Virus record (IMG/VR): IMGVR_UViG_3300017759_003727
Coordinates: 18,911-82,910 of that record
Reading direction: 5' to 3' (one strand)
DNA: 64,000 bases
Origin: a virus
A program made the translations under genes and the position numbers. The notes under the pieces were generated by a model. That model worked only from the letters and a program-made list of their open reading frames with translations. It was not told the origin of the DNA and made no database searches. This document shows, piece after piece, positions 8,101 to 33,785 of this stretch. How positions within the stretch are numbered: the first letter of the stretch is position 1; every line of letters begins with the position of its first letter.

Positions 8101-9560
8101 CCGATAAAGGAGGTCTGAATGTTGTACCGACCTATGGTTATAGTATTTCTGGAGGAATAACAGGCAACGTGATTAAAACTTTACCCATCAACGATGGAAA
8201 CACAGTAAATCAAAATATAAACTACACAACAGGCGTTAGGGATTATAATGTATTTATGATCGGAGGAGTTTCTGGAGATGTCAATTTCTCAACTAATCAT
8301 AACGGCATAAGTGGAAACAAATATACGGAAGATTTAATTTTAAATATGAGTCCTTTTAGAGATGGTATTGGGTTTGATGCTTTTGTATCAGATATTGATA
8401 ACTTTGCTGATTTTGAAAGTGGAGAACATAGAGAGGAGATAATCATACCAGAAGGAAAAATTAGTGGTGTTCCTCTTTATAGTGGATTCAATGCGGGACT
8501 TGAGTTTGGTGAAGAATTTGAAAACGAATCTGTCGTAACAATAGATTTTCAACATTCTAATCCTTTAATTTATAGATATCCAACGGGAATAATCTTTACA
8601 GGGTTCAGTCATTACACAGGTGTAGATAGTAACGGTAACTTTATTGATGGAGAAACTGGTTGGTACCTTACTAATTCTGGAGGAAATGTAGATGACCCAA
8701 CGGATTATGGAAATGTAGCGATTACTACTTTGGGAGAAACCACAGCAACTACTAGCTCTACTACAATGGAAGGATTTTTTAGTGGACACCAAAATATAGT
8801 CTCAGTAAAATTCTTTACTGGTAGTCAAAGTGGTTTTACTTTTAATCCTTATTCTGATGATTTCGCATTTGAAAGAGATGTTAATTTAAGAATTGAAACT
8901 GGTTTTTCTGGAGGAAATGGCGGGCTTGGAATATATCAAAGAGAATTTATATTTACTAACAACGATATTGATTCGAACACTGGAATGATTTTTTATTCAG
9001 CTATACCATATTCACAATTAGGGCCGATTCTTAATATGCAAACTGGACAACTAGCTTCTCATAAAAATTTAAATAATCCATTTGGAAGCTTTAGGTTGGA
9101 CGAACATGTATTTAGTGGTAGAATGTTTACTGGATTTCCAGATTTTAATGATGACCACCCAAATGTAGAACCAACTAATTCAAAAACATCTGCATTAGTT
9201 AGTCAAGGTAATTTAAAACTTACTGGAGAATGTCATATTTATATTTCAAGAGAATCTGGATTATCTGATTTGCAATTTAATGATGAAACATTTGTTGTCT
9301 CACATACTGCTGGTGAAGTAGAATTCAGAATAGATACTGGAATAGCAGATGGAATAGGTATGGATGACGAATGGTCAATGACAATTGATCAAAGAACAAG
9401 TAGCTCTGTAAGGGTAAGAGACGCTCAAAATAATGCTACAGTAGCTACTGCTGCAACATCAGCAGGTGCGGTTAGTAAAAGTAATAGCAATGAAGCTATG
9501 ATAACTGTAACTTACGACAAGACTTCGAACAAAATTTTATTTAGAGAATTTAGTTCTTAA
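2133..9560 (+). CDS. Giant host-specificity protein J with an N-terminal vWA-like domain and lectin-like repeats
   Basis: The central tail-tip and receptor-binding protein, 2475 residues against about 1130 in lambda. J signatures are SEGPIGGLVD near residue 50, NPAWILFDLL near 776 and DGFGGLEPRF near 828. Between them, residues about 120-316 read as a von Willebrand A-like domain: a hydrophobic strand ending in DLSSNS (near-MIDAS), then SYTEAIANIL, AFIVIG and a final VLTIDIG strand. The C-terminal half holds two H-type-lectin-like repeats (about 1486-1650) and a LamG/concanavalin-like domain (about 1805-1950). It is rich in SGF/TGF turns. It overlaps the convergent acetyltransferase by 11 bases. 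Confidence 0.85.
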   Translation: MSNYKKYFSKTNQKLKIAGAGSKAEPSNLIPNKRAFVKESYSLSSTVDLVSEGPIGGLVDVDGRYLAGDENDIIETVPSEDNVLSSKEGFILKGFPDKFLNQTYLPKVSNIPGSYKKLRSKKSYRTIIIVDLSSNSERHLDAIKEKVQTVIESTNLMKAAGYQIDFTLVGLGDQGQVIRQELVGFGHYTSLIPVFGSFQYLDDISRTTNPEKIYNSISNATTLVEGDGKSRTSYTEAIANILDEQGDRGYYPNAFIVIGANPDTTTNKSVALERIEELAQTAAVKNATNRGIVNVSDPTQGNTILTFGFRLHVLTIDIGNGEMERSLRAVKNASLNIETKEFQSDKTVLDVFKYIQPNLLGTSSSKVYRGFEGAKNQLHPKDVPQLAFDGSNWAITNLEGSVIYYTCPEDRFSYNLFYGFDIPWTASEQAAGPAGETYLLNGLTLDKGVYFDELQLKTDRGKQFAKYKIEQKLGSENQTASKIVPKAVRLHTKNFKLLGPYDRDINGARAGTGSADIRKFNSDTAGGSRNFTDWQSFDPAQTDPSIFYHEVTDEDVDSLDLEIQISQLSDTQSFSSKGDNKSGRATMGRNLATTIKYSITLELVFRDGTTENRLLNLKIPLSDKKGFQTVNTESASIISVKGIITAPYSFTIKDIVLPEKTDDIVKRVLKVEKLTYETNSNLINRLTHISSVAERSKYSFNYPYSASIVTSLDARAFDDMPNRTFKLKGKKILIPSNYFPTDEAGLDRRFSEDSSTAGNLIYDGLWDGTFRYDWSDNPAWILFDLLNNFRYGTALYNRDLENIDIWSLYEIGRYCDAVDDYGKFEGLTDGFGGLEPRFSYNHKIDGDNEAFTIIKDIAKFMRCLVYYKDSQVQFKIDKPEQASMLFNNLNVVDGLFNYADVVKNSRTSSVDVSFLDKKNNYRPRTEYAEDRDAIERYGYLKQYIDGFGHTSRASAQRSARNIIFDSTHATETVSFAAGFEAALLAPGDIIKIDDEMKSLEKNYGMFLTQTGANSETHKYPNGAYGPTGLIVDHQIGSQTGLIPTGENNESYIYLYNASNSTSLRELYAKKDNARVTYTDEEISGLKKPKISKLQIDTGAHPFQNLGDDSILIKLNPNQNFPQDAGYFPSMTPYSVDITGRAEKQYRVLSVKENEDSTYAVGAIIYHSGKYDVIEKNVNFDPTQDNFDVSLQSNVSTLPQIPASITARTDLSGVNKFGAIDHFFDIVNSDPVQADQYKIFLTYPSNRSIVLPRLLRTGLGTNEGNTSDNGKTQLAITGELINQFGTYELEIFSEFTKYYTKRSTNSRSVEFTVTADDLGLGNFGKVVTFDGITSKNQDDVFTENFAKQLTGTSLVGESDSQGSRLTRNDNDDSFLDLSLQYVDFVGNNALDQGYNLASEFHFYDSNPGSGMFNAVELAFTGKIGMDKFVVNKSNNHESLQVSVTGLKSGFDFEEANSTCLNNKFGIQTSGFSGARGADRYGTGYHVKFAEQFKGSPVVFIQQVMKSGISFTDYDNLDTYNITPSVVRANTTGFIHNTMSNDVSFFNYFAFETGDFRINNQRFKVRRVEKSDYADLQVDFADSFTGQRNENVVNKKNPIVFVQKQANQNEISFVGGTIAQVLNGTNSGFSLRATNIYGCSDTGDYGYLAIEQTNDNVNEFNFQVIDDDKTQFTGGDIFLTDGLLSPYNSGIENINYTDFGSGTFNYRASHFYQDGSQKISQPGDKFDYYQVDFLAQNDGFVGDTSTHTRFETQAAVVDGGNKTSGNWVRYSDVGAYNNTGIFATGLDAEGDNVKIHFNQNTLHSSGNLNIGKKGFSVLGWFQFKEDSDQWATLIDNWHGTGFVWRQSGGYNQIFAGTGNSQSNVVNVAENLNDGKTHSIFVSVGNNGAVTSWVDGERTTGTSVDPWSETPSGLNNLGVCSFLGSQGNGGNAGCPLTGQSLSSGFAQNFMFIKDGIMDDNSAKLYSVNPYKAYIATDNWAILDFHFGTGALATDKGGLNVVPTYGYSISGGITGNVIKTLPINDGNTVNQNINYTTGVRDYNVFMIGGVSGDVNFSTNHNGISGNKYTEDLILNMSPFRDGIGFDAFVSDIDNFADFESGEHREEIIIPEGKISGVPLYSGFNAGLEFGEEFENESVVTIDFQHSNPLIYRYPTGIIFTGFSHYTGVDSNGNFIDGETGWYLTNSGGNVDDPTDYGNVAITTLGETTATTSSTTMEGFFSGHQNIVSVKFFTGSQSGFTFNPYSDDFAFERDVNLRIETGFSGGNGGLGIYQREFIFTNNDIDSNTGMIFYSAIPYSQLGPILNMQTGQLASHKNLNNPFGSFRLDEHVFSGRMFTGFPDFNDDHPNVEPTNSKTSALVSQGNLKLTGECHIYISRESGLSDLQFNDETFVVSHTAGEVEFRIDTGIADGIGMDDEWSMTIDQRTSSSVRVRDAQNNATVATAATSAGAVSKSNSNEAMITVTYDKTSNKILFREFSS

Positions 9561-14961: not shown

Positions 14962-16100
14962 GCCTCTTCTATTTCTTCATATTGTCGTTCCTTTTCAACA
15001 TAATTTGGGAACATATACATAAACATCTGCTGAAAAGATTCAGTATGTTCTGGATGCATTTCTAACAGAAATGGCTTTACTTGTTTGTATATTTCGTAAT
15101 TTTGATAAAATTTTTCTAAATCCGAAAGCCCCTCTGTTGCAATTAAAAACAAATGCCTACTAATTAAATCATTGGCTATAATTAGTGCGTTTACTTTTTC
15201 TTTTTCAAAATACTTAGCTATAAAAGTTTTTTCATTAAAAGAAGAAACAATGTCAGAAGATTTAAAATATTTTTTTAAAAAATTTATTAAATAGTTTTTT
15301 GCGTAATTAAAATTAAGATTATATGCCGTTTTTTGTAAACTAGTAAATAAATCCAAGCAATAAGAATTTTCAAAGTTAATAATTTTTATCATATCGTCTC
15401 TATATAGAATAGAAGATTTTTTAATATCAAAATGACTAAAAACATTAGTGCTTACTGTATAGTTCTGATCTATAAATTCTTTGTTTTTCTTAAGTATATT
15501 CTCTATATCAAAAGCGCTAAATCCAAAATATGTAACCATATTCGATTCAATATCAATATCTTCTTCGATAAAGCCAACAACTGATGCATGAATATCATGC
15601 ATATCTGATAAAGTTGGCAAATTATCAACACTTGATTCATGTATTGTATCTAAGGTATTACAAAAAGTGCCTAGGTTATAATTTAAATCATCACTATCAA
15701 AATCTTCAAAAGAATAACCATTTTCAAATGTTGTACAAAGATAATGAGGTAATTCTCCTGTGTTTGATGATATAACTGTTGGGGAAACCAATGAAAGACC
15801 ACTAACTCCTGTTGGCAAATTGCTTATTGCAATTTTTTCCATTCCAATGCTATCGGTACCAGTAATATAGCTAATTTTGATCATTTTTCTGCTATTTTCA
15901 AAATCTAAAGCGAAGGTATCATAAAAAAAGCTTTGATGAACTTGTTTCATATTTAATATTTCACCAAAACCACTTATTAAAGGATCTTCTGTATGTATTG
16001 TTTGAAGAAGTCCAGATTCTATAGAATCAACAGCCACAAAGTCTTTTTTCACTCCTGCTGATATTAGAGGCGAGTTGTACGCAATTTCCTTAAAGTCCAT
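14958..16100 (-). CDS. APH/choline-kinase-like protein with degenerate catalytic motifs
   Basis: A 380-residue protein whose middle resembles aminoglycoside phosphotransferase/choline-kinase folds: LGTFCNTLDTIHE, then FSHFDIKKSSIL, then KIINFENSYCLDL. These occupy the places of the family's HxDxxxxN loop and the metal-binding (I)DFE. The catalytic-loop Asn is replaced by Ser and the metal-binding Asp by Asn. The protein may therefore be a pseudokinase or bind a ligand without catalysis. It starts 8 bases after a GTGTAA motif that itself follows a terminator, so it is a single late transcription unit. It could alternatively be a structural protein with chance resemblance. Confidence 0.65.
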   Translation of the reverse strand: MDFKEIAYNSPLISAGVKKDFVAVDSIESGLLQTIHTEDPLISGFGEILNMKQVHQSFFYDTFALDFENSRKMIKISYITGTDSIGMEKIAISNLPTGVSGLSLVSPTVISSNTGELPHYLCTTFENGYSFEDFDSDDLNYNLGTFCNTLDTIHESSVDNLPTLSDMHDIHASVVGFIEEDIDIESNMVTYFGFSAFDIENILKKNKEFIDQNYTVSTNVFSHFDIKKSSILYRDDMIKIINFENSYCLDLFTSLQKTAYNLNFNYAKNYLINFLKKYFKSSDIVSSFNEKTFIAKYFEKEKVNALIIANDLISRHLFLIATEGLSDLEKFYQNYEIYKQVKPFLLEMHPEHTESFQQMFMYMFPNYVEKERQYEEIEEA

Positions 16101-16114
16101 AGAATATATTACAC
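16101..16114 (-). promoter_or_regulatory. Late-type promoter GTGTAA-N8-ATG
   Basis: On the - strand, GTGTAA (16109-16114) is followed by 8 bases and then ATG 16100. It abuts the T-tract of the terminator at 16115-16140, so transcription must restart here, which supports a promoter rather than a translation signal. Confidence 0.65.
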
Positions 16115-16140
16115 AAAAAAGGCGGTATTTCTACCGCCTT
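16115..16140 (-). terminator. Rho-independent terminator after the 69-residue gene
   Basis: A perfect 9-bp stem, AAGGCGGTA/TACCGCCTT, with a 4-base loop is followed on the - strand by six T. It ends the leftward replication transcript just before a late-type promoter. Confidence 0.85.
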
Positions 16141-16145
16141 GATAT

Positions 16146-16355
16146 TTAGATACGAATTTCACCCATATTCAAACCAGAAAGACTGGTTTTAGCAAATTTT
16201 CGTTGCTGTTGGGCGTTTCGATCATGGATAACCACATAATTGGGAGTCTCCTTAACGAATTGAGCATTATAGCTGTTTCCGCTTTTGGTCCGAAGGCCGA
16301 AGAATCGACCCCCGCTTTTTTTCATTGTATTTACTATACGGTTTACTTTTCTCAT
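16146..16355 (-). CDS. Small basic hypothetical protein
   Basis: A 69-residue, strongly basic protein (MRKVNRIVNTMKKSGGRFFG...). The middle, RFFGLRTKSGNSYNAQFV, is compatible with a small beta-rich nucleic-acid-binding or accessory fold, but no family is recognised. It lies 2 bases downstream of the Clp-like gene with an AGGA 8 bases before its ATG, and is the last gene before the terminator at 16115-16140, so it belongs to the replication operon. Confidence 0.65.
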   Translation of the reverse strand: MRKVNRIVNTMKKSGGRFFGLRTKSGNSYNAQFVKETPNYVVIHDRNAQQQRKFAKTSLSGLNMGEIRI

Positions 16356-16357
16356 AA

Positions 16358-17734
16358 TTAAAATCCTATTTTTCCAGGGATGTGTATATCTTTGCTTTTG
16401 ATCTTTTCTATTGTTGTGTTGAATTTAGATGCAAATATATCATATATAATCGATTTGTCAATACTTAAAGCTGATTTGTTTTCATCATTTTCCATTTTCC
16501 CTTTAACTCCAGCTTCATCAATTATATCAAAAGCTTTGTCTGGAAACTTTTTGTCAGTTTGGAATTCAGAGCATAGGTCTACTATAATTTTTAAAATTTC
16601 TTTTTTAAATTTTACATTGTGAAATTTTTCATAAGACACTTTAGCTTTCTGTAAAAGCTCTAATGTTTGTTCTTTTGTTGGTTCTAGTATTTCTATTTTC
16701 TCAAAACGGCGATTTAAAGCAGAATCTCCTTTAAAGTATTTGTTGTATTCATCGTTTGTTGTAGCTCCTATACAGGAAACATCTCCACGAGAAAGGGCAG
16801 GCTTAAGTATATTTGCTAAATCCAAGCTACCTTCAGAACTGCCTGCTCCAATGATGGTATGAATCTCATCAATAAAGAGAATACAATGCTCGTCTTCAGA
16901 AGCTGTTTCAATAATAGCTTTAACTTTTTCCTCCATCTGACCTCTGTACATTGTGCCAGCTAATAGGGAAGTCATATCTAAGGAATAAACTTTTTTATTT
17001 TTCAATGACTTTGGACATTTTGACTGCAAAATTCTTTCTACAAGACCCTCAACAATCGCTGTTTTACCAACTCCAGCTTCTCCAACTAAAACGACATTTG
17101 ATTTATTCTTTTTTAACAAGATTTCAAAGGCTCTTTGAGTTTCTGAATCTCTGCCAAAAATTTCAAAAGTGCCTCTATCTTTTATTCTTTCATTTATGTT
17201 TTCGCAGGACTCTTCCAAGGTCTTAGATATTGATTTTTTATTAGATATTGATTGAGCTGGTTGAGTAGGAATTGGCTCTATAAAAGAAACTCCTTCTTTC
17301 ATTGACAATGAAAGCATTGCAATAAATGCAGCTAAATCAACTCCAAGAGCAGATATAAAAGTTGATATCTCATCTCTAGTTTCGAGTATAGATAAAAGGA
17401 TATGATCTATACCAATATACTCATCCTTACTTTTTTTAGAAATTTTTTGAGCATAATCTAAAATTTCATAAATTTCTGGAGCAAAGATTCTATGTTTTCT
17501 TTTGGGCTCTGTGTATTCAGAGATAATCAAATCCATGGCTTTACAGAAGCCCTCTTTGATTAATGCACTTGAATCAAAACAATAATCAATTGTTTTGTGT
17601 TCTACTTGTAGAATCGCCCAAAGTAGATGGAAGTCTACGACTTTTAATTGACGGCTATCGTCCGCTTTTTTTCTAGCTTTTTTTAAAGCGTTTTTCGCTG
17701 ATGGTGTTAGGTTATATTTTTTAAAATTGCTCAT
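16358..17734 (-). CDS. ClpA/ClpC-like AAA+ unfoldase with a single ATPase module
   Basis: A 458-residue Clp/Hsp100-type protein. Residues about 1-145 form a double Clp N-domain (LKKARKKADDSRQL..., YIGIDHILLSIL). A D1 AAA+ module follows, with Walker A GEAGVGKT near 218, Walker B CILFIDEIH near 285, and the sensor/arginine-finger segment SALNRRFEKIEI. Cellular ClpA/B/C have a second AAA domain (D2); here the protein ends with the D1 helical lid, so D2 and any ClpP-binding loop are missing. It is coupled by an ATGA overlap to the polymerase gene, suggesting a role in remodelling replication or assembly complexes rather than classic proteolysis (inference). Confidence 0.85.
   Translation of the reverse strand: MSNFKKYNLTPSAKNALKKARKKADDSRQLKVVDFHLLWAILQVEHKTIDYCFDSSALIKEGFCKAMDLIISEYTEPKRKHRIFAPEIYEILDYAQKISKKSKDEYIGIDHILLSILETRDEISTFISALGVDLAAFIAMLSLSMKEGVSFIEPIPTQPAQSISNKKSISKTLEESCENINERIKDRGTFEIFGRDSETQRAFEILLKKNKSNVVLVGEAGVGKTAIVEGLVERILQSKCPKSLKNKKVYSLDMTSLLAGTMYRGQMEEKVKAIIETASEDEHCILFIDEIHTIIGAGSSEGSLDLANILKPALSRGDVSCIGATTNDEYNKYFKGDSALNRRFEKIEILEPTKEQTLELLQKAKVSYEKFHNVKFKKEILKIIVDLCSEFQTDKKFPDKAFDIIDEAGVKGKMENDENKSALSIDKSIIYDIFASKFNTTIEKIKSKDIHIPGKIGF
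16434..16461 (-). promoter_or_regulatory. Possible intragenic sigma-70 promoter
   Basis: On the - strand TTGACA (16456-16461), 16 bases, then TATATT (16434-16439) lie inside the 3' end of the Clp-like gene. It could give extra transcripts of the 69-residue gene at 16355. Unlike the other early promoters, no ATG lies 7 bases downstream. Confidence 0.3.
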
Positions 17735-20307
17735 TTAATTTCTGATAATCTTGTGTAAATTTTTTCGTCAAGAATTGTAATTTTATCACCAAAGATTATG
17801 TCTTCACCTTTAGCTCCGTAAACAAAGACAATTTGTTCTTCTTTGGGTTTTTTGCCTCCATTGTTTAAATACTCTGAAAGAGTCGCTGATCTACGATTAT
17901 CCATAAGCATAAAATTAACCGTGCCGTAATCATCTTGTATTTCAATTCTCATGTATTTATTGCCAGCACGACTTGTTCTAGATACACAGTCTTTAACTAC
18001 TCCTACGAATTTAACTTTGTCATTTTGTGGTATTGATTTTAATTCTAAACTGTCAACTAGATTGTCTGTGTCTTGAAACACATCTTTGATATCGCTAGAA
18101 TGACTATACCCTAAATATTTTCTTTCAAAGAACCAGTTGGCAAAAACTAAATGATTTTTATTTTTGTCATAAATAGATTTGTATCCGTCATACTTTTTCT
18201 TAAAAGTTTGGAATCTAGATTCCTTCATTAAAGGCTTCCCGTCATCAGCAGGTAAAGACTCTTTTTTAACATAAGCGATAGAATTTAAAATATCATAATT
18301 AAACTTCTCACCTAATGCTATAAAGTTGCGTTTTTCTCTTTCTGTAAGAATGTTGAATGCTTGAGCTTCTAAAACTAATCGACAGCGATTTGGTATTCTG
18401 TTTTGTGAATCACAAAATGTATCAACCATTCCACCTTGAATCAAACCAGACAAAACGCCAATGTTGATCCCAGACTGTTTAGCTGATATAAAGATGTCGT
18501 ATTTGGTTTGCTCAATCAATTCTGATTTTCTAAAATCTACTACATTCTCTAATGTTTTTTCAGAAACACCTTTGATACTATTGATGCCGTAACGGATGTT
18601 TTTACCTTCGATTGAAAACTCTACATCTGATTTTGAGAGGTCGGGTGGCAAAAGCTTCATATCAAAAAGACATAACTCTTGATTTATTAGAGCAATTTCT
18701 GAGTGAGAATCTGGCTCATGCTTAGTCATCTTTAATAAACTTAAAAAGAACTCTTTAGGGTGATTAAATTTAAGGTAAGTCGTAATTGCAGCTAGTGTGG
18801 CATAACTAATTGAGTGCGACTTATTAAATGAATAGTTGGCTGAATCTTCAGCGACCTTCCAAAGAACATCTCCGACTTGTTTACTTAAATTATTTTCTTC
18901 AATCTTTTTCTCAATCTTAGCTTTCCATATAGGCATTTGATCTACTTTTTTCTTACCGACAATACGCCTAAGTTGTTCCGCTTCATCAAGAGTGAAACCA
19001 ACCTTAACAGCCATTTTCATTAACTGTTCTTGATAGAGAGGGATACCGCCAGTATAACTGAGGATATCATCATAATACTCATTAACGGACTGAAAGACAC
19101 TAGTTTTAATATAAGATGCATAGGTATCCAGATAATCCAAAGCTCCAGGCCTAGCAATAGCCACAACAGAAGAAAGCTCGTCCAGATTTCTTGGAGAGAC
19201 TTTTTTGCAGACTTTAAAATTTGTGTCCGCTTCAATTTGGAAGAGACCTTTCGGTGCCTCAATGAATTTGAAGTTTTCATATATGCTTGGTGATTCAACA
19301 TCTATATCATTCATATCCAAACCTAACTGTTGGCAAGTATCATGCACAACAGAAAGTGTTCTTAGACCTAAGATGTCAAATTTTACCATCAACGAAGCGA
19401 CGTCATTCATATCATAACCCGATACATAATTTCCGTCATTTGTTTTTTGCATTGGCATAACCTCTTCAATATTGTAGAAGCTAATAGCAATGCCCGATGG
19501 GTGAACGCCAGTGTTCTTATTTAATCCTTCTAGTTTTCTGGCAATTTCAAAAATCCTTGGATTGTCGTCACAAAACTTTTTTAGTTTTTCGCTTTCGTCA
19601 TAAGCTTTATCAAGCTTAAACACCTTTCCGAACTGTTTAGGTATTGAGGCGCTAATATCATTAACTTCTTCCTCTGACATTGAACCGACAATTTTACCGC
19701 ACTCTTTTACACATAATTTACTACTTAATGTATTTAAAGTTAAAATTTTACAAGTTCTACCTTTATGCTGATCCTCAATATATTTAATAACTTCTTGTCT
19801 ACGATCATAGCTAATATCGTTATCGACATCAGCAAGTAATGAACCATCTAGGTATGTAATACCGTCAACAATAGTTTTCTTAGCACGACTTTTGGATACG
19901 AATCTCTCAAAGAATAAATCATATTTAATTGGATCGATATTGGTGACTTTAAGTAAATAAAGAACTAAAGAGCCAGCAGCCGAACCACGACCTGGGCCAG
20001 TAGGTATTTCGTTTTCATGGCAATAATTAAGAATATCCCAATTTAAAAGAATATAGTCAATAAACCCCAGTTCTTTCAAAATAGAAAGCTCCATTTTGAC
20101 TCGATCGTAATATTCTTTTTTATTTTCTAATTTATCAATACCTCTTTGCTCGACGCCACGAAGGCATAATGCCCTCAGAAGGTCGAAGTTGGAAGATTGA
20201 GGGTCGAGGTCTAATTCAGAATAAACTCGTCTTTTAACCTCAATTTCGGGCAATCTAACACCAACAGGCATTGGTTGTTTAAATGATTCTAAATTTCTAA
20301 TTCCCAT
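17731..20307 (-). CDS. dnaE: DNA polymerase III alpha subunit, polymerase core without PHP domain
   Basis: The replicative C-family DNA polymerase, 858 residues. The nucleotidyltransferase core begins almost at once: GPGRGSAAGSLVLYLL near residue 104 and the catalytic aspartates in ADVDND near 158. Finger and helix-hairpin regions follow (QEQLMKMAVKVGF, DSANYSFNKSHSISYA). An OB domain (TSRAGNKYMRIEIQDDYG) lies near the C-terminus. Cellular DnaE is about 1160 residues because an N-terminal PHP domain precedes the core; that domain is encoded separately at 20927-21604, with the DnaQ exonuclease gene in between. The start overlaps dnaQ by 19 bases. Confidence 0.92.
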   Translation of the reverse strand: MGIRNLESFKQPMPVGVRLPEIEVKRRVYSELDLDPQSSNFDLLRALCLRGVEQRGIDKLENKKEYYDRVKMELSILKELGFIDYILLNWDILNYCHENEIPTGPGRGSAAGSLVLYLLKVTNIDPIKYDLFFERFVSKSRAKKTIVDGITYLDGSLLADVDNDISYDRRQEVIKYIEDQHKGRTCKILTLNTLSSKLCVKECGKIVGSMSEEEVNDISASIPKQFGKVFKLDKAYDESEKLKKFCDDNPRIFEIARKLEGLNKNTGVHPSGIAISFYNIEEVMPMQKTNDGNYVSGYDMNDVASLMVKFDILGLRTLSVVHDTCQQLGLDMNDIDVESPSIYENFKFIEAPKGLFQIEADTNFKVCKKVSPRNLDELSSVVAIARPGALDYLDTYASYIKTSVFQSVNEYYDDILSYTGGIPLYQEQLMKMAVKVGFTLDEAEQLRRIVGKKKVDQMPIWKAKIEKKIEENNLSKQVGDVLWKVAEDSANYSFNKSHSISYATLAAITTYLKFNHPKEFFLSLLKMTKHEPDSHSEIALINQELCLFDMKLLPPDLSKSDVEFSIEGKNIRYGINSIKGVSEKTLENVVDFRKSELIEQTKYDIFISAKQSGINIGVLSGLIQGGMVDTFCDSQNRIPNRCRLVLEAQAFNILTEREKRNFIALGEKFNYDILNSIAYVKKESLPADDGKPLMKESRFQTFKKKYDGYKSIYDKNKNHLVFANWFFERKYLGYSHSSDIKDVFQDTDNLVDSLELKSIPQNDKVKFVGVVKDCVSRTSRAGNKYMRIEIQDDYGTVNFMLMDNRRSATLSEYLNNGGKKPKEEQIVFVYGAKGEDIIFGDKITILDEKIYTRLSEIK

Positions 20308-20924
20308 AATTGTTTTTGAAATATTTCAAAGTTCTTTTCTATATCGTATAAAGCATCATGCAGTTTCTTTTCATCAAAGTCAATATTATAATGCTCTAAT
20401 AAATATTTTTGATTAGTTTTTAATCCTCGCTCTCTGTAATTTAAATATTTTAACTGCCAAGCAATCAAATCTTCTTTATCTGGATTTTTATTGCCTTTAG
20501 CAATTGCCATAGCCATAGCTTTTGTATCAAAGCAACGATTGATGTAATTTTCATGGCTTATTTTTATGCCTATTTTTTTAAGCCAAACATTTAATATATA
20601 AATGTCATAACCAAGAATATTTTGACCAACTATGATAGTATCATCATCATAAAGAACTTTTTCAAAATCTTTCCAAACATCTGATGGATCTTCGGCAACT
20701 GATTCATAATGCTCACGATTAAATCCAGTGACTCGTGCTGCCTCTGGAGAAACATTTAGATTATCCCATTTGATAAAGCGATTATGTTTTTTGATAATTT
20801 TATTACCTTCACATTCAATCCAAGCTATCTGCCAAGGCTTAGAGGTAATTAAGTTTAAACCTTCTGTTTCTGTATCGAATACAACATATTTTTGTTTAAA
20901 ATTAAATCTTAATAAGTCTTCCAT
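20289..20924 (-). CDS. dnaQ: DnaQ-like 3'-5' exonuclease (DEDDh)
   Basis: A 211-residue proofreading exonuclease. Exo I is VVFDTETEGL, Exo II is VGQNILGYDIYIL (DNA-binding Asp), and Exo III is HDALYDIEKNF with the His and Asp of the DEDDh class. It should excise mismatched nucleotides for the polymerase encoded directly downstream. It has the clearest Shine-Dalgarno sequence in the region (AAGGAGG about 10 bases before ATG 20924). The gene sits between the PHP and polymerase ORFs, the same domain order as in the single-chain Gram-positive PolC. Confidence 0.9.
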   Translation of the reverse strand: MEDLLRFNFKQKYVVFDTETEGLNLITSKPWQIAWIECEGNKIIKKHNRFIKWDNLNVSPEAARVTGFNREHYESVAEDPSDVWKDFEKVLYDDDTIIVGQNILGYDIYILNVWLKKIGIKISHENYINRCFDTKAMAMAIAKGNKNPDKEDLIAWQLKYLNYRERGLKTNQKYLLEHYNIDFDEKKLHDALYDIEKNFEIFQKQLWELEI

Positions 20925-20926
20925 AA

Positions 20927-21604
20927 TTATTTATCCTCCTTCCAAGCTTCCACACAAAAACGATTACTACCAAAATGATCTAGTCCTGGATTAGACAAAT
21001 CAAAACTTCTCCCTGGCCTACGATTACAAATCATTTTGTAGGTTTGAAATGCTTCAACATCCTCTTTGTTTTCGTAATAAATAGATTTAGCAGTAATAGT
21101 GTCATTTTTGTTATTTTGACAATACGATAAAATCTTGTCCTTAATTAGAGAATCAAAAGGAAGATTGTTGTCTTCCAATAAGAAATGAATATCAGACGGC
21201 AAATCAACAATACAATTAGAAAAGCTTGTTAAATTTTTATGTATAAAAGAATCGTAAAAAGGCACAACATACTTTAATTCCTTTGTTGAATCCCAAGGTC
21301 TTGTGATTTTTGAATCAAACTGCTGAGTAAACAAAGAATACATTTCTTTGGCGCCTGCATCACCGTTAGCGAAAGCAATCATTTTGCTTTCTGATTCTTC
21401 GCTGTGATCATTGTTGTATATAGAAAATCTTAAACCAAACCTAAGTTTTGATCCTAGTTTTCTGAAGGCTTCTGGGAAGCATGTCATTGAATCTTCTACA
21501 ATAAAAACTTGTTCAAGTTTTTCATTCTCTGAGATTCTTAATATGTCATCAATACGCAGTATGCTTTTTCCGATTGATGAATGAGTTTTAAATAATGGAA
21601 TCAT
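20927..21604 (-). CDS. Stand-alone, degenerate PHP domain of DNA polymerase III
   Basis: A 225-residue protein whose two ends match the PHP domain of DnaE. The start, MIPLFKTHSSIG, replaces the family's FVHLHTHSxYS. VEDSMTCFPEAFRKLGSKL replaces the TDHGNxxG block, and the C-terminus has a typical ENKEDVEAFQTYKMIC. Most metal-binding His and Asp residues are lost, so phosphoesterase activity is unlikely; a structural or docking role with the polymerase core is inferred. ATG 21604 is preferred over ATG 21610 because it lies 7 bases after the -10 box, as at other early starts. It is first in the leftward operon. Confidence 0.75.
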   Translation of the reverse strand: MIPLFKTHSSIGKSILRIDDILRISENEKLEQVFIVEDSMTCFPEAFRKLGSKLRFGLRFSIYNNDHSEESESKMIAFANGDAGAKEMYSLFTQQFDSKITRPWDSTKELKYVVPFYDSFIHKNLTSFSNCIVDLPSDIHFLLEDNNLPFDSLIKDKILSYCQNNKNDTITAKSIYYENKEDVEAFQTYKMICNRRPGRSFDLSNPGLDHFGSNRFCVEAWKEDK

Positions 21605-21611
21605 ACACATA

Positions 21612-21639
21612 AATATAGACCGTGTATGAGATTTGTCAA
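21612..21639 (-). promoter_or_regulatory. Early sigma-70 promoter for the polymerase operon
   Basis: On the - strand TTGACA (21634-21639), 16-base spacer, TATATT (21612-21617), then 7 bases to ATG 21604. This geometry predicts a leaderless transcript. It lies in the short gap before the PHP gene. Confidence 0.75.
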
Positions 21640-21642
21640 GCT

Positions 21643-22119
21643 CTATATTAACAAATCTTTAATTAAAATGTTATAACAGTCGGATTTAAATTTCCATTTG
21701 CCGTTCCCCTTAGGATCTATCTGACCTTTCTTGCCGAAAGTAGCTTTATCATAGAAGTCTTTCTTTTTCATAAAGCCATAAACGTACACTATAGTGTTTG
21801 ATTCATTAACACCAACAAAGCAATAAGCATCACATTTTTGTTTTGTATTGTAGTCGGAAACATTTAAATTCCAATTTTCATTGGGGGCAAATTGATCGGA
21901 GAATTTTTTTGTTTTTATATCTATTTTATAATCTTTAATTATTGTGTCATAATCATAAGTATTTTCTCCGCTTCCTTTGTATGCGTCTTTTACTATGATC
22001 TCACCAACAGCGCCTGCTAAATTACCTTCTCCTTTGGTAATGCTGTTATTCAACTCTTTAAAATCAAAAAGCTTTTTAGCTCTTTCTAGTTGCGATTCTG
22101 TAACTAAGAATTTTTTCAT
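21643..22119 (-). CDS. PD-(D/E)XK-like nuclease, restriction-endonuclease fold
   Basis: A 158-residue protein. An N-terminal helix with GEGNLAGAVGEIIVKDAY supplies the Glu often seen before this fold. TYDYDTII then gives the first acidic residue and KIDIKTKK the D-x-K pair, followed by strands and a WNLNVSDY segment. This is the core of small restriction-like nucleases; the target is unknown. It overlaps the upstream nuclease gene by 4 bases (ATGA) and ends 38 bases before the PHP gene, where the next promoter begins. A non-catalytic DNA-binding role is possible. Confidence 0.7.
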   Translation of the reverse strand: MKKFLVTESQLERAKKLFDFKELNNSITKGEGNLAGAVGEIIVKDAYKGSGENTYDYDTIIKDYKIDIKTKKFSDQFAPNENWNLNVSDYNTKQKCDAYCFVGVNESNTIVYVYGFMKKKDFYDKATFGKKGQIDPKGNGKWKFKSDCYNILIKDLLI

Positions 22120-23105
22120 TTATGTTTGGGGCATCCTCCGTAATGTTTGATTGAATGACTACCTCCTTCGGGAACCATATTTTTTTCAAATTCGTCTTGG
22201 AAGCATGATGAATGAAACTCCCCTTCTTCGTTTAAAATTGTCACATACCAAAAATCAAATTTATATGGACAGTGCCACATTAGTGAACCATCTTTTTTAA
22301 GTTGACCTTTTTCTTTGGCAAATCCACATTGTAACTTACCCCCAAAAGAACCGTCATCTGGAAAACCTTTATCCGCTGCGAAATTAGATTTAGCATCTCG
22401 TTCATTAAAATTTTCTAAATATTCTTGTATTGAAGCTAACTGCATTTCAAAACCTTCTAAGTCATCATCGTCAATTGGCTTCATTTTCATTAATCCGTTT
22501 TTCTTTAAATCAAATTTTAAAAACATAAACTCTGATGTTCGATTAACATATTCTGGAAATAAATGACTAACAGCTAAACAATACATATAATCTTGAAGAT
22601 TGTCTTCTTTCTCTTTCCCTTCAAACATTTTTTTACTAGTTTTATAGTCTCGTATAATTGCAATCTTTTTATCTTTATACAAAAACAACTGGTCTATAAA
22701 TCCTCTTATATGATAACCATTTTTTTCTATATCAAAATCTAACTCTGCGTGAGCTTCATCTGGTATACCTAAATCTTCTCCATGAAAGTTGCAACTCAAA
22801 CCATTGAGAATCATTTGTTTGATAAGTGTCATATTATCTTCATCTGTAACACCAAGCTCTGTGGCGTCAGACATAATTAATTCTTCTACTGATTTAGAGG
22901 CAAAAGGGTCTTTGGCTTTTACTATCTTATTGAACTGAGTTTTGGTTTTTTGTTTTGACAAAAATTCAAAAACATTATGACAAACAGTACCACGACGAGC
23001 GCCATCATTATTAGTATCTGGTAATTTTTGTTTGTATTTGTTCCAGTATATCCAACTGCAGGATTGCGCTGTCTTAATACGACTTGCTGATAGTTTAACT
23101 TCCAT
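22116..23105 (-). CDS. RecB/Cas4-type PD-(D/E)XK exonuclease
   Basis: A 329-residue nuclease of the RecB/Cas4 superfamily (PDDEXK_1). The N-terminal ASRIKTAQSCSWIYW with Cys17, RRGTVCHNVFEFL, the acidic pair in GFIDQLF, RDYKTSK (D-x-K) and the QxxxY motif of LQDYMYCLAV are all in family order. Three more cysteines (CPYKF, SCFQDE, GGCPKHK) follow at the C-terminus and could bind an iron-sulfur cluster with the N-terminal Cys, as in AddB and Cas4 (inference). It overlaps the primase gene by 11 bases. A likely role is end resection for the RecA-like recombinase. Confidence 0.8.
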   Translation of the reverse strand: MEVKLSASRIKTAQSCSWIYWNKYKQKLPDTNNDGARRGTVCHNVFEFLSKQKTKTQFNKIVKAKDPFASKSVEELIMSDATELGVTDEDNMTLIKQMILNGLSCNFHGEDLGIPDEAHAELDFDIEKNGYHIRGFIDQLFLYKDKKIAIIRDYKTSKKMFEGKEKEDNLQDYMYCLAVSHLFPEYVNRTSEFMFLKFDLKKNGLMKMKPIDDDDLEGFEMQLASIQEYLENFNERDAKSNFAADKGFPDDGSFGGKLQCGFAKEKGQLKKDGSLMWHCPYKFDFWYVTILNEEGEFHSSCFQDEFEKNMVPEGGSHSIKHYGGCPKHK

Positions 23106-24141
23106 TTTTTAAAATTTTTATTAATTTTTTGCAGTGTGTATTTTTTTTGAGTTGGTCATTTTGGTTTATTTGTTTGAGTATATATTCTTGAAATTTTTGA
23201 TCGCCCATGCACCACTTATCTTTTCGTTCATACCACTGACCAAACGAATTATTTAATCCTGTATCATGTTGAAGCATATCTCCAAAATCATTATCCAATG
23301 GTGGATTAATTTTAATTAAAGAAAGATCAAAAACCGTAGCGAGTTTAGCTGCATTTTTTATTGAAGCCATAGCACCAGAGTTTAACTCTTTGCTATTATC
23401 GTTGTTTGTGGCGATAATAATTCTTTCTAAATTAAAAGAATTCAAATAAGAAATTAATTTTGTTGAGGCATCCAATCCCGCCAACATCAAAACATTTTTA
23501 AAACCAGCTTCGTGCAAAGCCATACAATCACCAATACTCTCTACCAATATAACTTCGCTAGTTTCGTCTATAGTTTTGTAGGCAAGATGGTGTGGGTATA
23601 CCCAATTATTTTTACGACCCATGTGTTTCCATTTAGGAATATTATCTGCTTCAACAACTGTTCTGCCAGAAAACCCGTGTTTCTGATTGTCTAAATTGTA
23701 AATAGGAAAAACTACCCTCCGATACATTTTGCCTCCACCAGCATAACCACATTTAAACAACTTTTGTGTTTCTTGTGAGATGCCTTTTTTCTCATAGAAA
23801 TTATACATTGGTAAAAGCTTACTTAGTTGTGATTCGGGGTATACTTTTTCCATTTCTATTTTTTCTTGCTTTGGTTCGTTTGGTTTGTATTCTGTAGGGC
23901 TGTCTACCAAATACTCTTTAAGAATATTAAAGTCTTCTGTCTTGAGAGTTTCCTTAACTAAAGCGTTGAATGGCTTGGCTTGATTGTCGCCACCAAAGTC
24001 TTTCCATACTCCAGTATCTTTATATATAATAACAGAAGTTTGAGTTTTTCCATTTCTATATATAGCACGAGTTCTCCAATGATTTCCGCAGTCTTGAAGA
24101 TTATACCCAAGTTTTTCTAATTTATCTCTATAGGTCATCAA
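23095..24141 (-). CDS. Toprim DNA primase, DnaG-like
   Basis: A 348-residue protein. The N-terminus ends in TGVWKDFGGD, reminiscent of the beta-sheet part of DnaG zinc-binding domains but without the zinc ligands. A Toprim domain follows, with VILVESIGDCMALHEAG supplying the catalytic Glu strand, VLMLAGLDAS, and ATNNDNS in place of the usual DxD. The length fits a phage primase without a C-terminal helicase-binding domain. It overlaps the DnaB gene by 14 bases, so helicase and primase are translationally linked. It should lay primers for the split polymerase III. Confidence 0.85.
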   Translation of the reverse strand: MMTYRDKLEKLGYNLQDCGNHWRTRAIYRNGKTQTSVIIYKDTGVWKDFGGDNQAKPFNALVKETLKTEDFNILKEYLVDSPTEYKPNEPKQEKIEMEKVYPESQLSKLLPMYNFYEKKGISQETQKLFKCGYAGGGKMYRRVVFPIYNLDNQKHGFSGRTVVEADNIPKWKHMGRKNNWVYPHHLAYKTIDETSEVILVESIGDCMALHEAGFKNVLMLAGLDASTKLISYLNSFNLERIIIATNNDNSKELNSGAMASIKNAAKLATVFDLSLIKINPPLDNDFGDMLQHDTGLNNSFGQWYERKDKWCMGDQKFQEYILKQINQNDQLKKNTHCKKLIKILKNGS

Positions 24142-25648
24142 ATGAAGGTAGGTCGTTTTGTTCTGTACTAATTAACTCTCCACCGCTATCTCGGAAAGCA
24201 ACAATATCCCTAAGATCTCCGCACTCAGTTATATTAAAATTCTTAAACTCTAAATTTAAAAAATTCTTTCTTAAGTTGTCTCCAACTTGTACGGGTTCAC
24301 AAGCACCTGCAATATCTTTACCTAAGTGTCGAGCTTTTACGTTTACTAACTTATGAGTCCCAAAGTGCGAACCTTCATCAGCCATCTCGTCATGGGTTTT
24401 TTGACGCAAAATAAACATATGGGAACAAAATTGTGTGATTCGGTCTGATAGAGAAACAATAGATTCATCGTCTACAATATTTTGAGCATTACGATTTGTG
24501 GTAATACCACTACGATTAGATTGAACCGAAGTAATCATTGGGATAACAGGAGCGCCATCTTCTAGTATTTCTTTTTGAATACATTTTTTAAATTTGTCTA
24601 CCATTTCACCAACGAGTTGCCATTCATTTTTGTTTCCGCTGATTCCGTCTGATGACGTCTTAATATAATCAAAAGAGAAAACCATATTGTTGCCACGACC
24701 TACTTGAGAATAATAAAATCTTTTTAAGGTATTTATCATAGAATCAACATCCATTCCACCGACATTATAGTAATAAAATTTAAGCTTTTTGATTTTATTC
24801 CATACAGAGCGAACTTTATTCACGGTATCTTCTCCCGCTTGTCGCCACTTACCACTCTCTAATAAATGAGATGGAACTCCAGACATCGCGGCACATTGAC
24901 GGATAATAAGTTCCTCTTTACTCATCTCTCCGTTATCAAAATGCAAAACAGGAACATCATATTTTTCCGCTACTCTGGTTGCATAGTGCATACAGAACTG
25001 TGTTTTACCAACGCCAGAGCGAGCCACAATAACTGTAATATTTCCTGGACGTAATAAGGAGCCATATATCTCGTTTGTCTTTGGGTGTGGACCCATCATG
25101 CCAAACTCTTCAATAGGATTGTTACCACGCTCCTCGATAAAATCCTCCATCTCTTCGTAAATATTTAGTGGTACATCATCACCCACTTCAAATAAGTTTA
25201 TCTTCTCATTGTAAATTTCATCTGCTGTTTCAATAATTTTCAGATAGGGTACGTCCGTATTAATAGACTTCATCTGTTCTGATAACTTTTCTGCCGTGCT
25301 GGATATTTCTCTACGGACAGTAAGTTTTTTAAGTTCTTGTACTGAGGATTTTAATTTAGCCTCAGAATGTATCTTTCGCATTGATAGCGACTTGACGTAA
25401 TCAAGAATATTTATATCTTCTTCAAACTTAATTCCTAAGTCTTTGATTCTCTGCACTAAAACAACCTCATCAATGCTTTCGTTTTTTTCAGAAGCATTCC
25501 GTAGAATAATAAATAATGTTTTGTGCAATAGGGATCTTTTGTCGTAAAAGTCTTTTTCGTTAATCACCGAAAGGAAATCTACAAAAGCTTGAGGCTTTTG
25601 TATAAATGCGGCTAAGACTTGTTTTTCAATTTCGTAGCTATAAATCAT
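24128..25648 (-). CDS. dnaB: DnaB-like replicative helicase
   Basis: A 506-residue hexameric 5'-3' helicase. The N-terminal helical domain (EIEKQVLAAFIQKPQAF...) resembles DnaB-N. The RecA-like motor has Walker A VARSGVGKT near residue 209, followed by VLHFDNGEMSKEELIIRQ (motif H1a), and FSFDYIKTSS as Walker B. Motif LSDRITQFCSHMFILR and the C-terminal GACEPVQVGDN complete the fold. It lies in the order helicase, primase, nuclease. A possible promoter overlaps the end of the upstream gene, with its -10 6 bases before ATG 25648. Confidence 0.92.
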   Translation of the reverse strand: MIYSYEIEKQVLAAFIQKPQAFVDFLSVINEKDFYDKRSLLHKTLFIILRNASEKNESIDEVVLVQRIKDLGIKFEEDINILDYVKSLSMRKIHSEAKLKSSVQELKKLTVRREISSTAEKLSEQMKSINTDVPYLKIIETADEIYNEKINLFEVGDDVPLNIYEEMEDFIEERGNNPIEEFGMMGPHPKTNEIYGSLLRPGNITVIVARSGVGKTQFCMHYATRVAEKYDVPVLHFDNGEMSKEELIIRQCAAMSGVPSHLLESGKWRQAGEDTVNKVRSVWNKIKKLKFYYYNVGGMDVDSMINTLKRFYYSQVGRGNNMVFSFDYIKTSSDGISGNKNEWQLVGEMVDKFKKCIQKEILEDGAPVIPMITSVQSNRSGITTNRNAQNIVDDESIVSLSDRITQFCSHMFILRQKTHDEMADEGSHFGTHKLVNVKARHLGKDIAGACEPVQVGDNLRKNFLNLEFKNFNITECGDLRDIVAFRDSGGELISTEQNDLPSFDDL

Positions 25649-25654
25649 ATGACC

Positions 25655-25683
25655 TATAGTGCATAAAATATTTAAAATGTCAA
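25655..25683 (-). promoter_or_regulatory. Possible early promoter for dnaB
   Basis: On the - strand TTGACA (25678-25683), 17 bases, then ACTATA (25655-25660, weak -10), 6 bases before ATG 25648. The TGA of the -35 is the stop codon of the upstream gene. Confidence 0.4.
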
Positions 25684-25943
25684 CCGTTTTCTTCTAAATC
25701 TTCGTTTATTTCGTAGGGTTCGCCTTCTGCTTCTGTTAAATAAGTCTCTAACGCTTTAGCTAAAGCATATTCTGTGACCTGTGTGTCGCATTTTGTGTAT
25801 ACAATAGGGTCTCCATTTTCTGTAGAATAAGCTATTATAAAACCCTTATACGCTTCTGATGCTCCAGATAGCTCATATAATTTATCCAAAACTTTTTTAG
25901 GTAATTCAAAATCTTTGAATCTCGGATCGTTCTTCATACTCAT
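25680..25943 (-). CDS. Small hypothetical protein with its own late-type promoter
   Basis: An 87-residue acidic protein (MSMKNDPRFKDF...). It has an N-terminal helix pair, YKGFIIAYSTENGDPIVYTK as a possible beta hairpin, a further helix (EYALAKALETYL) and an acidic tail. No family is recognised. The 15-base gap before it contains little more than the GTGTAA motif, exactly 8 bases before ATG 25943; this supports that start over the in-frame ATG at 25937. It lies inside the early replication block but appears to be expressed late. Confidence 0.65.
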   Translation of the reverse strand: MSMKNDPRFKDFELPKKVLDKLYELSGASEAYKGFIIAYSTENGDPIVYTKCDTQVTEYALAKALETYLTEAEGEPYEINEDLEENG

Positions 25944-25957
25944 ATCTATATTTACAC
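25944..25957 (-). promoter_or_regulatory. Late-type promoter GTGTAA-N8-ATG
   Basis: On the - strand GTGTAA (25952-25957) followed by 8 bases and ATG 25943. It fills nearly all of the 15-base gap after the upstream nuclease gene. Confidence 0.65.
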
Positions 25958-25958
25958 T

Positions 25959-26360
25959 TTAGCCTAAAAGCTTTGAAAAATATTCTTCAGATAGTTCATC
26001 ATCTGGGTATATAAGCAGGAGTTCTATGTTATTTAGCTCACAAAAGTCCATTTTTTTATCATCTCTGCGTAATTGTCTAACAAAATTAGCCCTAGTTTTG
26101 TGAAAATGCTTAACAAACTTTAAATGTTGAGCTCCTTGTACTTCTATAGCTATTTTTCTACTATGATTATAAAAATCTAAAGAAAGTTGTGTGCCAGCTA
26201 CTTTAAACTCTTCATATACAGCATCATATCTCCAATGTTTATATAAGTATTTTCTTACTTCTGCTTGAAATTTGCTACGACATTTACCGTTCCACTTGAT
26301 TTTGTACCTATGTGGATTTCTAATTGGTTTTTCTTTGCCGTATAGAGTAATAAATTTCAT
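25959..26360 (-). CDS. Small PD-(D/E)XK endonuclease, DUF559/Vsr-like
   Basis: A 133-residue protein. KFQAEVRKYLYKHW is the leading helix with Glu, LSLDFYNHSRKIAIEVQG supplies the Asp and the E-x-Q of the catalytic centre, and QHLKFVKHFHKT, then NIELLLIYPDD, finish the fold. This order is that of DUF559/Vsr-like nucleases, where Q may replace the catalytic K. Its role could be DNA repair, Holliday junction or host DNA cleavage; the sequence does not decide. It follows the bidirectional terminator at 26364-26403 and has no obvious promoter of its own. Confidence 0.7.
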   Translation of the reverse strand: MKFITLYGKEKPIRNPHRYKIKWNGKCRSKFQAEVRKYLYKHWRYDAVYEEFKVAGTQLSLDFYNHSRKIAIEVQGAQHLKFVKHFHKTRANFVRQLRRDDKKMDFCELNNIELLLIYPDDELSEEYFSKLLG

Positions 26361-26363
26361 AAT

Positions 26364-26403
26364 AAAAAAGCCCTCACTTATAATAGAGAGGGCTTTGTTT
26401 TTT
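26364..26403 (-). terminator. Bidirectional rho-independent terminator
   Basis: A perfect 9-bp stem AAAGCCCTC/GAGGGCTTT with a 12-base loop. Runs of A on the left and T on the right give T-tracts in both directions. It ends the outer membrane protein transcript. Confidence 0.8.
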
Positions 26404-26417
26404 TCAAGTTAATTAAC

Positions 26418-27128
26418 TTAAAAGTTGAGGGCTACGCCAAAATCAGCTGTTTCTTCCCAATCACCATTAGTGCCTTGAGCTGTATTTAAATCATTATTAA
26501 GATAATTTAAATTAGCAAATACAGTCAAATGGTCTATTGTTGTTTGCACGCCAATTGTAGCTAATGTATAAGTATAATCTACATCATATTGAAATGATTG
26601 ACCATACTCTAAGCTAACTGCAACTAAAAAGTGCTCAGTAATGTCTAGGTCTGTTCCTACTGCGATATCTGCTGTATATTGACCTTCTTCTTCTGTTGTG
26701 ACAGAAAGAATAGAATCAATACCAAACAAATCAACAGCATAAGAACTTACTAGCTCGTAAGCATTTTCTCCATCAATAGAAGTAATTAACAGTTCCGTGC
26801 CGATATCACCAATGAAAGTAGAAAAAACAGTACCAACAGTACCATATAACTCTTCTTCATCAGCTTTTACTTGCTCGATTGAACTAACAAGCGATAAGCC
26901 ACCAATTACTCCTAATTCTGAAGACGCTTTAACATAATCAGCGTCTGCAGATCCGTAAAGCCCGCCATCAATACGTTTTTCGTAGTTACCTACTTCAACG
27001 TCGATATCCCATGACTTTACCGTTTCAGTGATTTCTTGCGCTTCAGCTTTTCCTCCGAAAAGGAAGAAAGCCGCGATAGCCGCGACAACAAGTCCCACTT
27101 TAATTTTATTTTTCTTTAGTATTTCCAT
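26418..27128 (-). CDS. Secreted beta-barrel-like outer membrane protein
   Basis: A 236-residue protein with a classic Sec signal peptide: MEILKKNKIKVG, a hydrophobic core VVAAIAAFFLFGG, and a KAEA cleavage site before QEITE. The mature part alternates polar and hydrophobic residues in short strands (FLVAVSLEYGQSF, TVFANLNYLN) and ends in ADFGVALNF, with the terminal Phe that BAM recognises in outer membrane porins. Phage-borne porins are known to change host receptors; exclusion or permeability are possible roles (inference). ATG 27128 with AGGAGG 12 bases upstream is chosen over a start at 27182. It lies between recA and a terminator. Confidence 0.75.
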   Translation of the reverse strand: MEILKKNKIKVGLVVAAIAAFFLFGGKAEAQEITETVKSWDIDVEVGNYEKRIDGGLYGSADADYVKASSELGVIGGLSLVSSIEQVKADEEELYGTVGTVFSTFIGDIGTELLITSIDGENAYELVSSYAVDLFGIDSILSVTTEEEGQYTADIAVGTDLDITEHFLVAVSLEYGQSFQYDVDYTYTLATIGVQTTIDHLTVFANLNYLNNDLNTAQGTNGDWEETADFGVALNF

Positions 27129-33783: not shown

Positions 33784-33785
33784 AA

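What the first reader, a model, noticed from the sequence alone, without database searches (positions are those of the whole stretch)
17731..21604. DNA polymerase III split into PHP, proofreading and polymerase ORFs
The leftward order is a degenerate PHP domain, DnaQ exonuclease and a polymerase core that begins just before the GPGRGS motif. Cellular DnaE carries PHP in the same chain. The ORF order mirrors the PHP-exonuclease-polymerase arrangement of PolC, where the exonuclease is inserted in PHP. The PHP piece has lost most metal ligands, so a structural, complex-forming role is likely.
Basis: partly seen in the sequence, partly recalled or inferred. Interest (0 to 1): 0.75.

Follow-up and report, generated by a model that had tools for sequence, protein, structure and literature searches.

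The report
Phage polymerase III with detached PHP subunit
A large group of uncultured aquatic phages encodes the bacterial-type replicative DNA polymerase as three adjacent genes, with the PHP domain, normally built into the polymerase chain, made as a separate and apparently catalytically dead protein next to the proofreading nuclease and the polymerase core.

Summary
On the minus strand lie PHP (20927-21604, 225 aa), a DEDDh exonuclease (20289-20924) and a DnaE-type polymerase core (17731-20307). The PHP fold is confirmed by structure prediction: VIA Z 18.4 to E. coli Pol III alpha residues 4-247. One viral contig (L068) carries both parts fused in one 1138-aa chain. The split is not an error: PHP is a separate ORF in every other relative whose upstream sequence is held (about 200 contigs, 67 PHP clusters), under purifying selection, and other genes sometimes separate the three ORFs. 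The metal ligands are lost family-wide, already in fused L068. Exonuclease and polymerase active-site residues are invariant. The likeness to PolC is superficial: the core is DnaE-type, the exonuclease is not inside PHP, and L068 keeps the exonuclease upstream of fused PHP-polymerase. No intein or intron fits the junctions. Most likely PHP is a trans-acting structural subunit that stabilises the polymerase and docks the exonuclease; binding was not shown. Where a strong promoter is recognisable it usually sits 5-9 nt before the PHP start, suggesting a leaderless mRNA. New variant of a known kind.

The parts
21612..21639 (-). Promoter-like site TTGACA-16-TATATT, 7 nt before the PHP start codon at 21604 (predicted leaderless start)
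   Evidence: in relatives 88 of 125 distinct upstream regions score >=10/12 and in 81 of these the -10 ends 5-9 nt before the start; no Shine-Dalgarno in 111 of 125
20927..21604 (-). Stand-alone PHP subunit, 225 aa, metal site lost
   Evidence: median dN/dS 0.09 over 25 pairs of relatives
20289..20924 (-). DEDDh 3'-5' exonuclease (DnaQ-type), 211 aa, no epsilon-like C-terminal tail; Shine-Dalgarno AGGAGG at 20940-20935
   Evidence: D17, E19, D107, H189, D194 invariant in 207 of 207 sequences
17731..20307 (-). DnaE-type polymerase core lacking PHP (palm, fingers, HhH, OB), 858 aa; overlaps the EXO gene by 19 nt
   Evidence: D401, D403, D555 equivalents present in 48 of 48 representatives
16358..17734 (-). 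ClpA/B-like AAA+ gene (N domain + D1 only), overlaps the POL stop by 4 nt; conserved downstream neighbour, role unknown

Best explanation
This is a C-family (DnaE-type) replicative polymerase of an uncultured aquatic phage group in which the N-terminal PHP domain has been detached at the PHP/palm boundary and is made as its own protein. Shown by sequence: three separate, closely linked genes, PHP fold, lost metal site, intact exonuclease and polymerase active sites, conservation across a large clade, and a fused relative. Inferred: the PHP protein folds alone, docks non-covalently on the core as the fused domain does in DnaE, stabilises it, and holds the separate exonuclease near the primer end, so that the three chains form one proofreading polymerase. 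The split most likely arose once, by gene fission in a phage with a fused PHP-polymerase and a separate exonuclease, with the exonuclease gene ending up between the two halves.
For: PHP fold and best match to DnaE PHP. Fused homologue L068, 1138 aa, whose PHP part matches other fused phage polymerases and passes Pfam PHP (E 6e-11). PHP is present in every POL locus whose upstream sequence is held; every POL-only contig of the family starts within 600 nt upstream of POL. Order PHP-EXO-POL in 199 of 225 contigs, with overlaps of -1 to -55 nt (PHP/EXO) and -4 or -19 nt (EXO/POL) in most. Purifying selection on PHP (median dN/dS 0.09). Ligand loss shared with fused L068, so inactivation predates the split; K, R, K stand at ligand positions 12, 69 and 83, the kind of positive replacement described for variant PHP domains (PMC3666897). 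In E. coli the variant PHP is structural and its mutation lowers Pol III stability and activity (PMC3666897); residues 1-270 alone are well behaved and bind the exonuclease fully (PMC3642679). Analogue: split PolB 43A/43B of phage 25 co-purify and are active (PMC2988022).
Against: No physical interaction is shown; complex prediction of separate chains was not possible. The fused L068 model does not fix the domain arrangement (pTM 0.60; superposes on DnaE with rmsd 11-13 A). The exonuclease lacks the epsilon tail that binds PHP in E. coli, so its docking mode is unknown. In E. coli a truncation at residue 255 was insoluble (PMC3642679), and this PHP ends near residue 247. The sister position of L068 to all split sequences has moderate support (95/68), and alternatives are mostly not rejected (AU p 0.49, 0.07, 0.12, 0.025), so re-fusion in L068 is possible.
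Confidence: 0.75

Rival explanations
1. The detached PHP is no longer part of the polymerase; it has become an adaptor or regulator (for example of the exonuclease or of another replication protein) and the core works without it.
For: PHP is the fastest evolving of the three (median dN/dS 0.09 against 0.06 for POL); it has its own conserved promoter; other genes can sit between it and the rest.
Against: Strict co-occurrence and near-fixed order with POL; fold matches the DnaE PHP, which in E. coli unfolds as one cooperative unit with the polymerase (PMC3666897).
Confidence: 0.13
2. PHP and polymerase are rejoined after transcription or translation (split intein, intron, trans-splicing, programmed frameshift).
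For: In the same family POL itself is split by a split intein in L180, L182, L193 and L211.
Against: At the PHP/POL junction there is no intein sequence: PHP ends at the PHP boundary, POL starts at the palm, and overlapping or adjoining stop/start codons leave no room for an intron or intein. Spacing and intervening genes vary, which speaks against a conserved frameshift.
Confidence: 0.02
3. The arrangement descends from PolC, whose chain was broken on both sides of its inserted exonuclease.
For: Gene order PHP-EXO-POL; the exonuclease scores best with the PolC model region and the closest solved sequence is a PolC exonuclease domain, but weakly.
Against: Core is DnaE-type by a wide margin; PHP is contiguous and complete; the weak OB match lies C-terminal as in DnaE; PHP model fits DnaE (Z 18) better than PolC (Z 15); L068 has EXO upstream of fused PHP-POL.
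Confidence: 0.03
4. Assembly or sequencing artefact of a normally fused gene.
For: None beyond the metagenomic origin of the sequences.
Against: The same split in about 200 contigs from many samples, with variable intervening genes and low dN/dS.
Confidence: 0.01

Closest known systems
Bacterial DnaE (Pol III alpha) with variant PHP plus separate DnaQ/epsilon, as in E. coli
   Same: DnaE-type core with all catalytic residues; metal-less PHP; separate DEDDh exonuclease
   Different: PHP is a separate gene product; exonuclease lacks the epsilon C-terminal tail; chain ends after the OB region, without a part matching the last residues of E. coli alpha
PolC
   Same: PHP, exonuclease and polymerase parts in that linear order
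   Different: One chain, exonuclease inside PHP, core of a different type, OB N-terminal
Split minimal Pol III alpha of group 2.2 jumbo phages (Iyer et al. 2021, PMC7824862)
   Same: Phage C-family polymerase made from separate genes
   Different: There the catalytic module itself is split between distantly located genes, other Pol III domains are absent and a PolB enzyme is present; here the core is whole and the PHP is retained next to it
Split gp43A/gp43B PolB of Aeromonas T4-like phages (PMC2988022)
   Same: Phage replicative polymerase encoded as two chains that reassemble
   Different: Family B enzyme; insertion-type splits in a few phages, not a clade-wide fission at a domain boundary
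Fused phage DnaE polymerases (Pbunavirus, Wifcevirus, Gordonia, Mycobacterium, Bacillus phages)
   Same: DnaE-type core; in Pbunavirus LMA2 a DnaQ gene lies directly upstream
   Different: PHP in the same chain in all nine examined by Pfam scan

Membership tests
C-family DNA polymerase, DnaE type | Sequence match above the curated DnaE-type cut-off and not PolC | tested here: met
   TIGR00594 437.5-441 bits against cut-off 434.35; TIGR01405 at most 17.9 bits on the core
C-family DNA polymerase, DnaE type | Catalytic aspartates (E. coli D401, D403, D555) | tested here: met
   Present in the window and in 48 of 48 representatives
C-family DNA polymerase, DnaE type | PHP domain in the same polypeptide | tested here: not met
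   PHP is a separate ORF in the window and in all relatives examined but L068
C-family DNA polymerase, DnaE type | E. coli-type internal clamp-binding motif (QADMF, 920-924) | tested here: inconclusive
   Aligned residues are NYDIL in the window and mostly (D/N/E)-Y-D-L-(L/V/I) in relatives; whether this binds a clamp is unknown
PolC | Exonuclease inserted inside the PHP domain | tested here: not met
   PHP model is contiguous over E. coli alpha 4-247; EXO is a separate ORF after it
PolC | Core scoring with the PolC model | tested here: not met
PHP domain | PHP fold | tested here: met
   VIA Z 18.4, 218 residues, 3.3 A to E. coli Pol III alpha
Active metal-binding PHP | Nine ligands HHDHEH[C/H]DH | tested here: not met
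   Window reads -KD-RK-SY in the sequence alignment; the D at position 19 is uncertain; similar patterns in 67 clusters
DnaQ / DEDDh exonuclease | DEDDh active-site residues | tested here: met
   D17, E19, D107, H189, D194 invariant in 207 of 207
E. coli-type epsilon subunit | C-terminal tail that binds PHP | tested here: not met
   EXO ends 17 residues after the last active-site Asp
Split-intein DnaE (cyanobacterial type) | IntN/IntC sequences at the break | tested here: not met
   None at the PHP/POL break; a split intein occurs elsewhere in POL of L180, L182, L193 and L211, as a positive contrast
Multi-subunit polymerase holoenzyme | Physical association of PHP, EXO and POL | not testable with these tools

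The most novel reading that the evidence does not exclude
The PHP protein is a separately expressed, exchangeable subunit: its own leaderless promoter sets how much PHP-exonuclease module is available, so that the phage polymerase can exist with or without its proofreading scaffold and tune stability or fidelity during infection.
Probability: 0.12. Interest if true: 0.8.

Novelty: new variant of a known kind. Interest (0 to 1): 0.6.

Why it matters
The PHP domain has been described as strictly conserved in bacterial replicative polymerases, and E. coli Pol III unfolds cooperatively with it (PMC3666897). Its non-catalytic role is hard to study because disturbing it destabilises the enzyme. A natural polymerase with the PHP supplied in trans would let PHP be added, omitted or mutated separately, making its structural and exonuclease-docking roles directly testable. 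It also adds a replisome architecture, common in aquatic viral contigs, that has no PHP match in the 50,697-record phage collection.

Tried and rejected
PolC origin: rejected by model scores, contiguous PHP and the L068 gene order. Artefact: rejected by about 200 contigs. Intein, intron or frameshift at the PHP/POL junction: rejected by overlapping or adjoining codons and lack of motifs. The PHP protein gave no match in 50,697 phage records even at E 1, none by phmmer in PDB sequences, and none in PHROGs or NCBIfam. The genome-collection scan for PHP found only 8 contigs in metagenome-assembled genomes of unrelated phyla, probably co-binned phage contigs, so no host could be named. The L068 query found no second fused relative. 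AU tests on 54 rows did not finish; the 20-row test left L068 placement open. The structure of the fused L068 chain was too uncertain to read an interface. Literature searches found no description of a PHP-detached DnaE in the open library held; subscription papers were not searched.

Full report
OBSERVATION. The window lies in an 82,910-base IMG/VR virus record. On its minus strand three ORFs lie in a row: 20927-21610 (227 aa), 20289-20924 (211 aa) and 17731-20307 (858 aa). The second is a DEDDh exonuclease and the third a Pol III alpha core. The first shows only a sub-threshold PHP match in Pfam (E 0.058). Its assignment rests on stronger tests: a family profile hits the PHP of Taq Pol III and of PolC (E about 1e-3); its AlphaFold model (pLDDT 83.6, pTM 0.82) finds DnaE PHP domains first by Foldseek (E 2e-8) and by VIA-align (Z 18.4, 218 residues, 3.3 A, E. 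coli alpha 4-247); and BLAST links it to the N-terminus of a fused polymerase (below).

FAMILY. Scans of viral contigs with these proteins brought in about 220 contigs. The order PHP-EXO-POL is found in 199 of 225, often in a block helicase-primase-nuclease-PHP-EXO-POL-Clp. Contig counts include some overlapping records; non-redundant sets have 67 PHP (70% identity) and 48 POL (75% identity) clusters. All POL contigs of the family without PHP begin at or within 600 nt upstream of POL, so no true absence was seen. The genes usually overlap or nearly touch (PHP/EXO -1, -31, -55 nt; EXO/POL -19 or -4 nt), but in many contigs other sequence stands between PHP and EXO (often 430-540 nt) or EXO and POL (190-1230 nt). 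They are therefore independent proteins. Selection is purifying on all three (median dN/dS PHP 0.09, EXO 0.08, POL 0.06; 25 pairs, a simple Nei-Gojobori estimate with high dS in many pairs).

THE FUSED RELATIVE. One 208-kb contig, L068, encodes PHP and POL in one 1138-aa chain. Its residues 7-250 match the window PHP (30%, E 2e-29) and its residues from about 260 on match the window POL (37% identity). The window junction loses almost no sequence: PHP ends at ...FCVEAWKEDK, corresponding to L068 ...FSFESAQEI, and POL resumes about ten residues later. The L068 PHP also matches N-termini of other fused phage polymerases (E down to 2e-11) and passes Pfam PHP (E 6e-11). In L068 the exonuclease gene lies upstream of the fused gene with three ORFs between. 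On the POL tree rooted with DnaE polymerases, L068 is sister to all 47 split sequences (support 95/68), which favours one fission after its divergence. A smaller tree does not resolve this (AU p 0.49, 0.07, 0.12 and 0.025 for alternatives), so re-fusion is not excluded.

ACTIVE SITES. Polymerase: the residues equal to E. coli D401, D403 and D555 are invariant. Exonuclease: D17, E19, D107, H189 and D194 are invariant in 207 of 207. PHP: of the nine ligands listed by Barros et al. (PMC3666897), none is kept with confidence. In 67 clusters position 12 is K (60), position 69 is R (59), position 83 is K (65), position 201 is S/T, position 203 is mostly Y/F, and positions 10, 44 and 134 fall in gaps; position 19 is variable and its alignment uncertain. 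L068 shows the same loss, so activity was lost before the split. Positive residues in place of metals match the replacement trend described for variant PHP domains.

WHY NOT POLC. In PolC the exonuclease is inserted into PHP and the OB domain is N-terminal (PMC3919608). Here PHP is uninterrupted, the weak OB match is C-terminal, the core scores 437.5 bits with TIGR00594 and at most 17.9 with TIGR01405, and the PHP model fits DnaE better than PolC. The exonuclease is slightly closer to PolC-type than to E. coli-type profiles (46.9 against 33.6 bits), too little to decide its origin.

WHY NOT INTEIN OR INTRON. In the window PHP stop and EXO start lie 2 nt apart and EXO overlaps POL by 19 nt, leaving no room. 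As a contrast, four contigs of this family do have POL broken by a split intein in the motif NYSFNK/SHS, two of them with an endonuclease-like ORF in the gap, and L173 has a contiguous intein-like insert. The PHP/POL break looks nothing like these.

PROMOTER. In 88 of 125 distinct upstream regions a TTGACA/TATAAT-like site scores at least 10 of 12, and in 81 of these the -10 box ends 5-9 nt before the PHP start codon, even where the start codon moves relative to the conserved protein; 111 of 125 have no Shine-Dalgarno. Random 90-base stretches reach 10 or more in 30 of 678; regions before EXO and POL in 3 of 150 and 6 of 148. This suggests that the operon transcript begins at the PHP start codon (leaderless mRNA). 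The same spacing occurs before some other ORFs of these phages (46 of 78 with a site of 11 or more). Transcript ends were not measured.

MECHANISM. Established knowledge: in E. coli the PHP is catalytically dead, supports Pol III stability and activity (PMC3666897) and binds the exonuclease; residues 1-270 alone are well behaved and bind it fully, whereas 1-255 was insoluble (PMC3642679). Inference: the phage PHP is the same module supplied in trans, bridging core and exonuclease. The step not shown is binding. The exonuclease ends soon after its last active-site residue, so the E. coli tail contact is missing and another contact must serve.

NOVELTY. Known split phage polymerases are different: 43A/43B of T4-like phages (PolB; PMC2988022) and a minimal Pol III alpha of jumbo phages split within the catalytic module and lacking the other Pol III domains (PMC7824862). 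Nine cultured-phage DnaEs examined all have PHP in the chain. I found no description of a PHP-detached DnaE in the papers held. I rate it a new variant of a known kind.

Noticed in passing
L180 7372-10576, L182 7372-10576, L193 7372-11250, L211 7718-11614: POL is additionally split by a split intein at NYSFNK/SHS, close to the cyanobacterial DnaE intein site (from memory); L193 and L211 carry a roughly 315-aa endonuclease-like ORF in the gap (fractured-gene arrangement).
   Followed up: partly
L173 7926-11714: POL of 1262 aa with a contiguous intein-like insert of about 400 residues after LRR, before CVGKKK.
   Followed up: partly
Upstream of PHP in relatives; window 21612-21639: Conserved strong sigma-70-type promoter 5-9 nt before the start codon and no Shine-Dalgarno: predicted leaderless mRNA; the same spacing is seen before some other ORFs of these phages (46 of 78).
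   Followed up: partly
window 16358-17734: ClpA/B-like gene overlapping the POL stop; only N domain and D1 (458-502 aa) in the window's clade, 807-842 aa in other relatives; no second-half ORF found in the window.
   Followed up: partly
window 29528-40734: Four separate ORFs match the nucleotide-sugar epimerase family phrog_540, near aminotransferase and acetyltransferase genes: possibly a phage glycan-synthesis cluster.
   Followed up: no
window 16434-16461: Second copy of TTGACA-16-TATATT, the only other 11-of-12 promoter match in 16000-26500.
   Followed up: no
L070 (Bacillus phage KLEB27-3) 4909-9279; L237 (Rossellomorea phage phiT1) 3110-6392: Cultured phages whose DnaE is broken inside the polymerase part by an HNH endonuclease gene or a small ORF; a different position from the PHP break.
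   Followed up: partly
window 2133-9560: 2475-aa tail protein related to the lambda J central tail fibre, which suggests a siphovirus-like particle.
   Followed up: no
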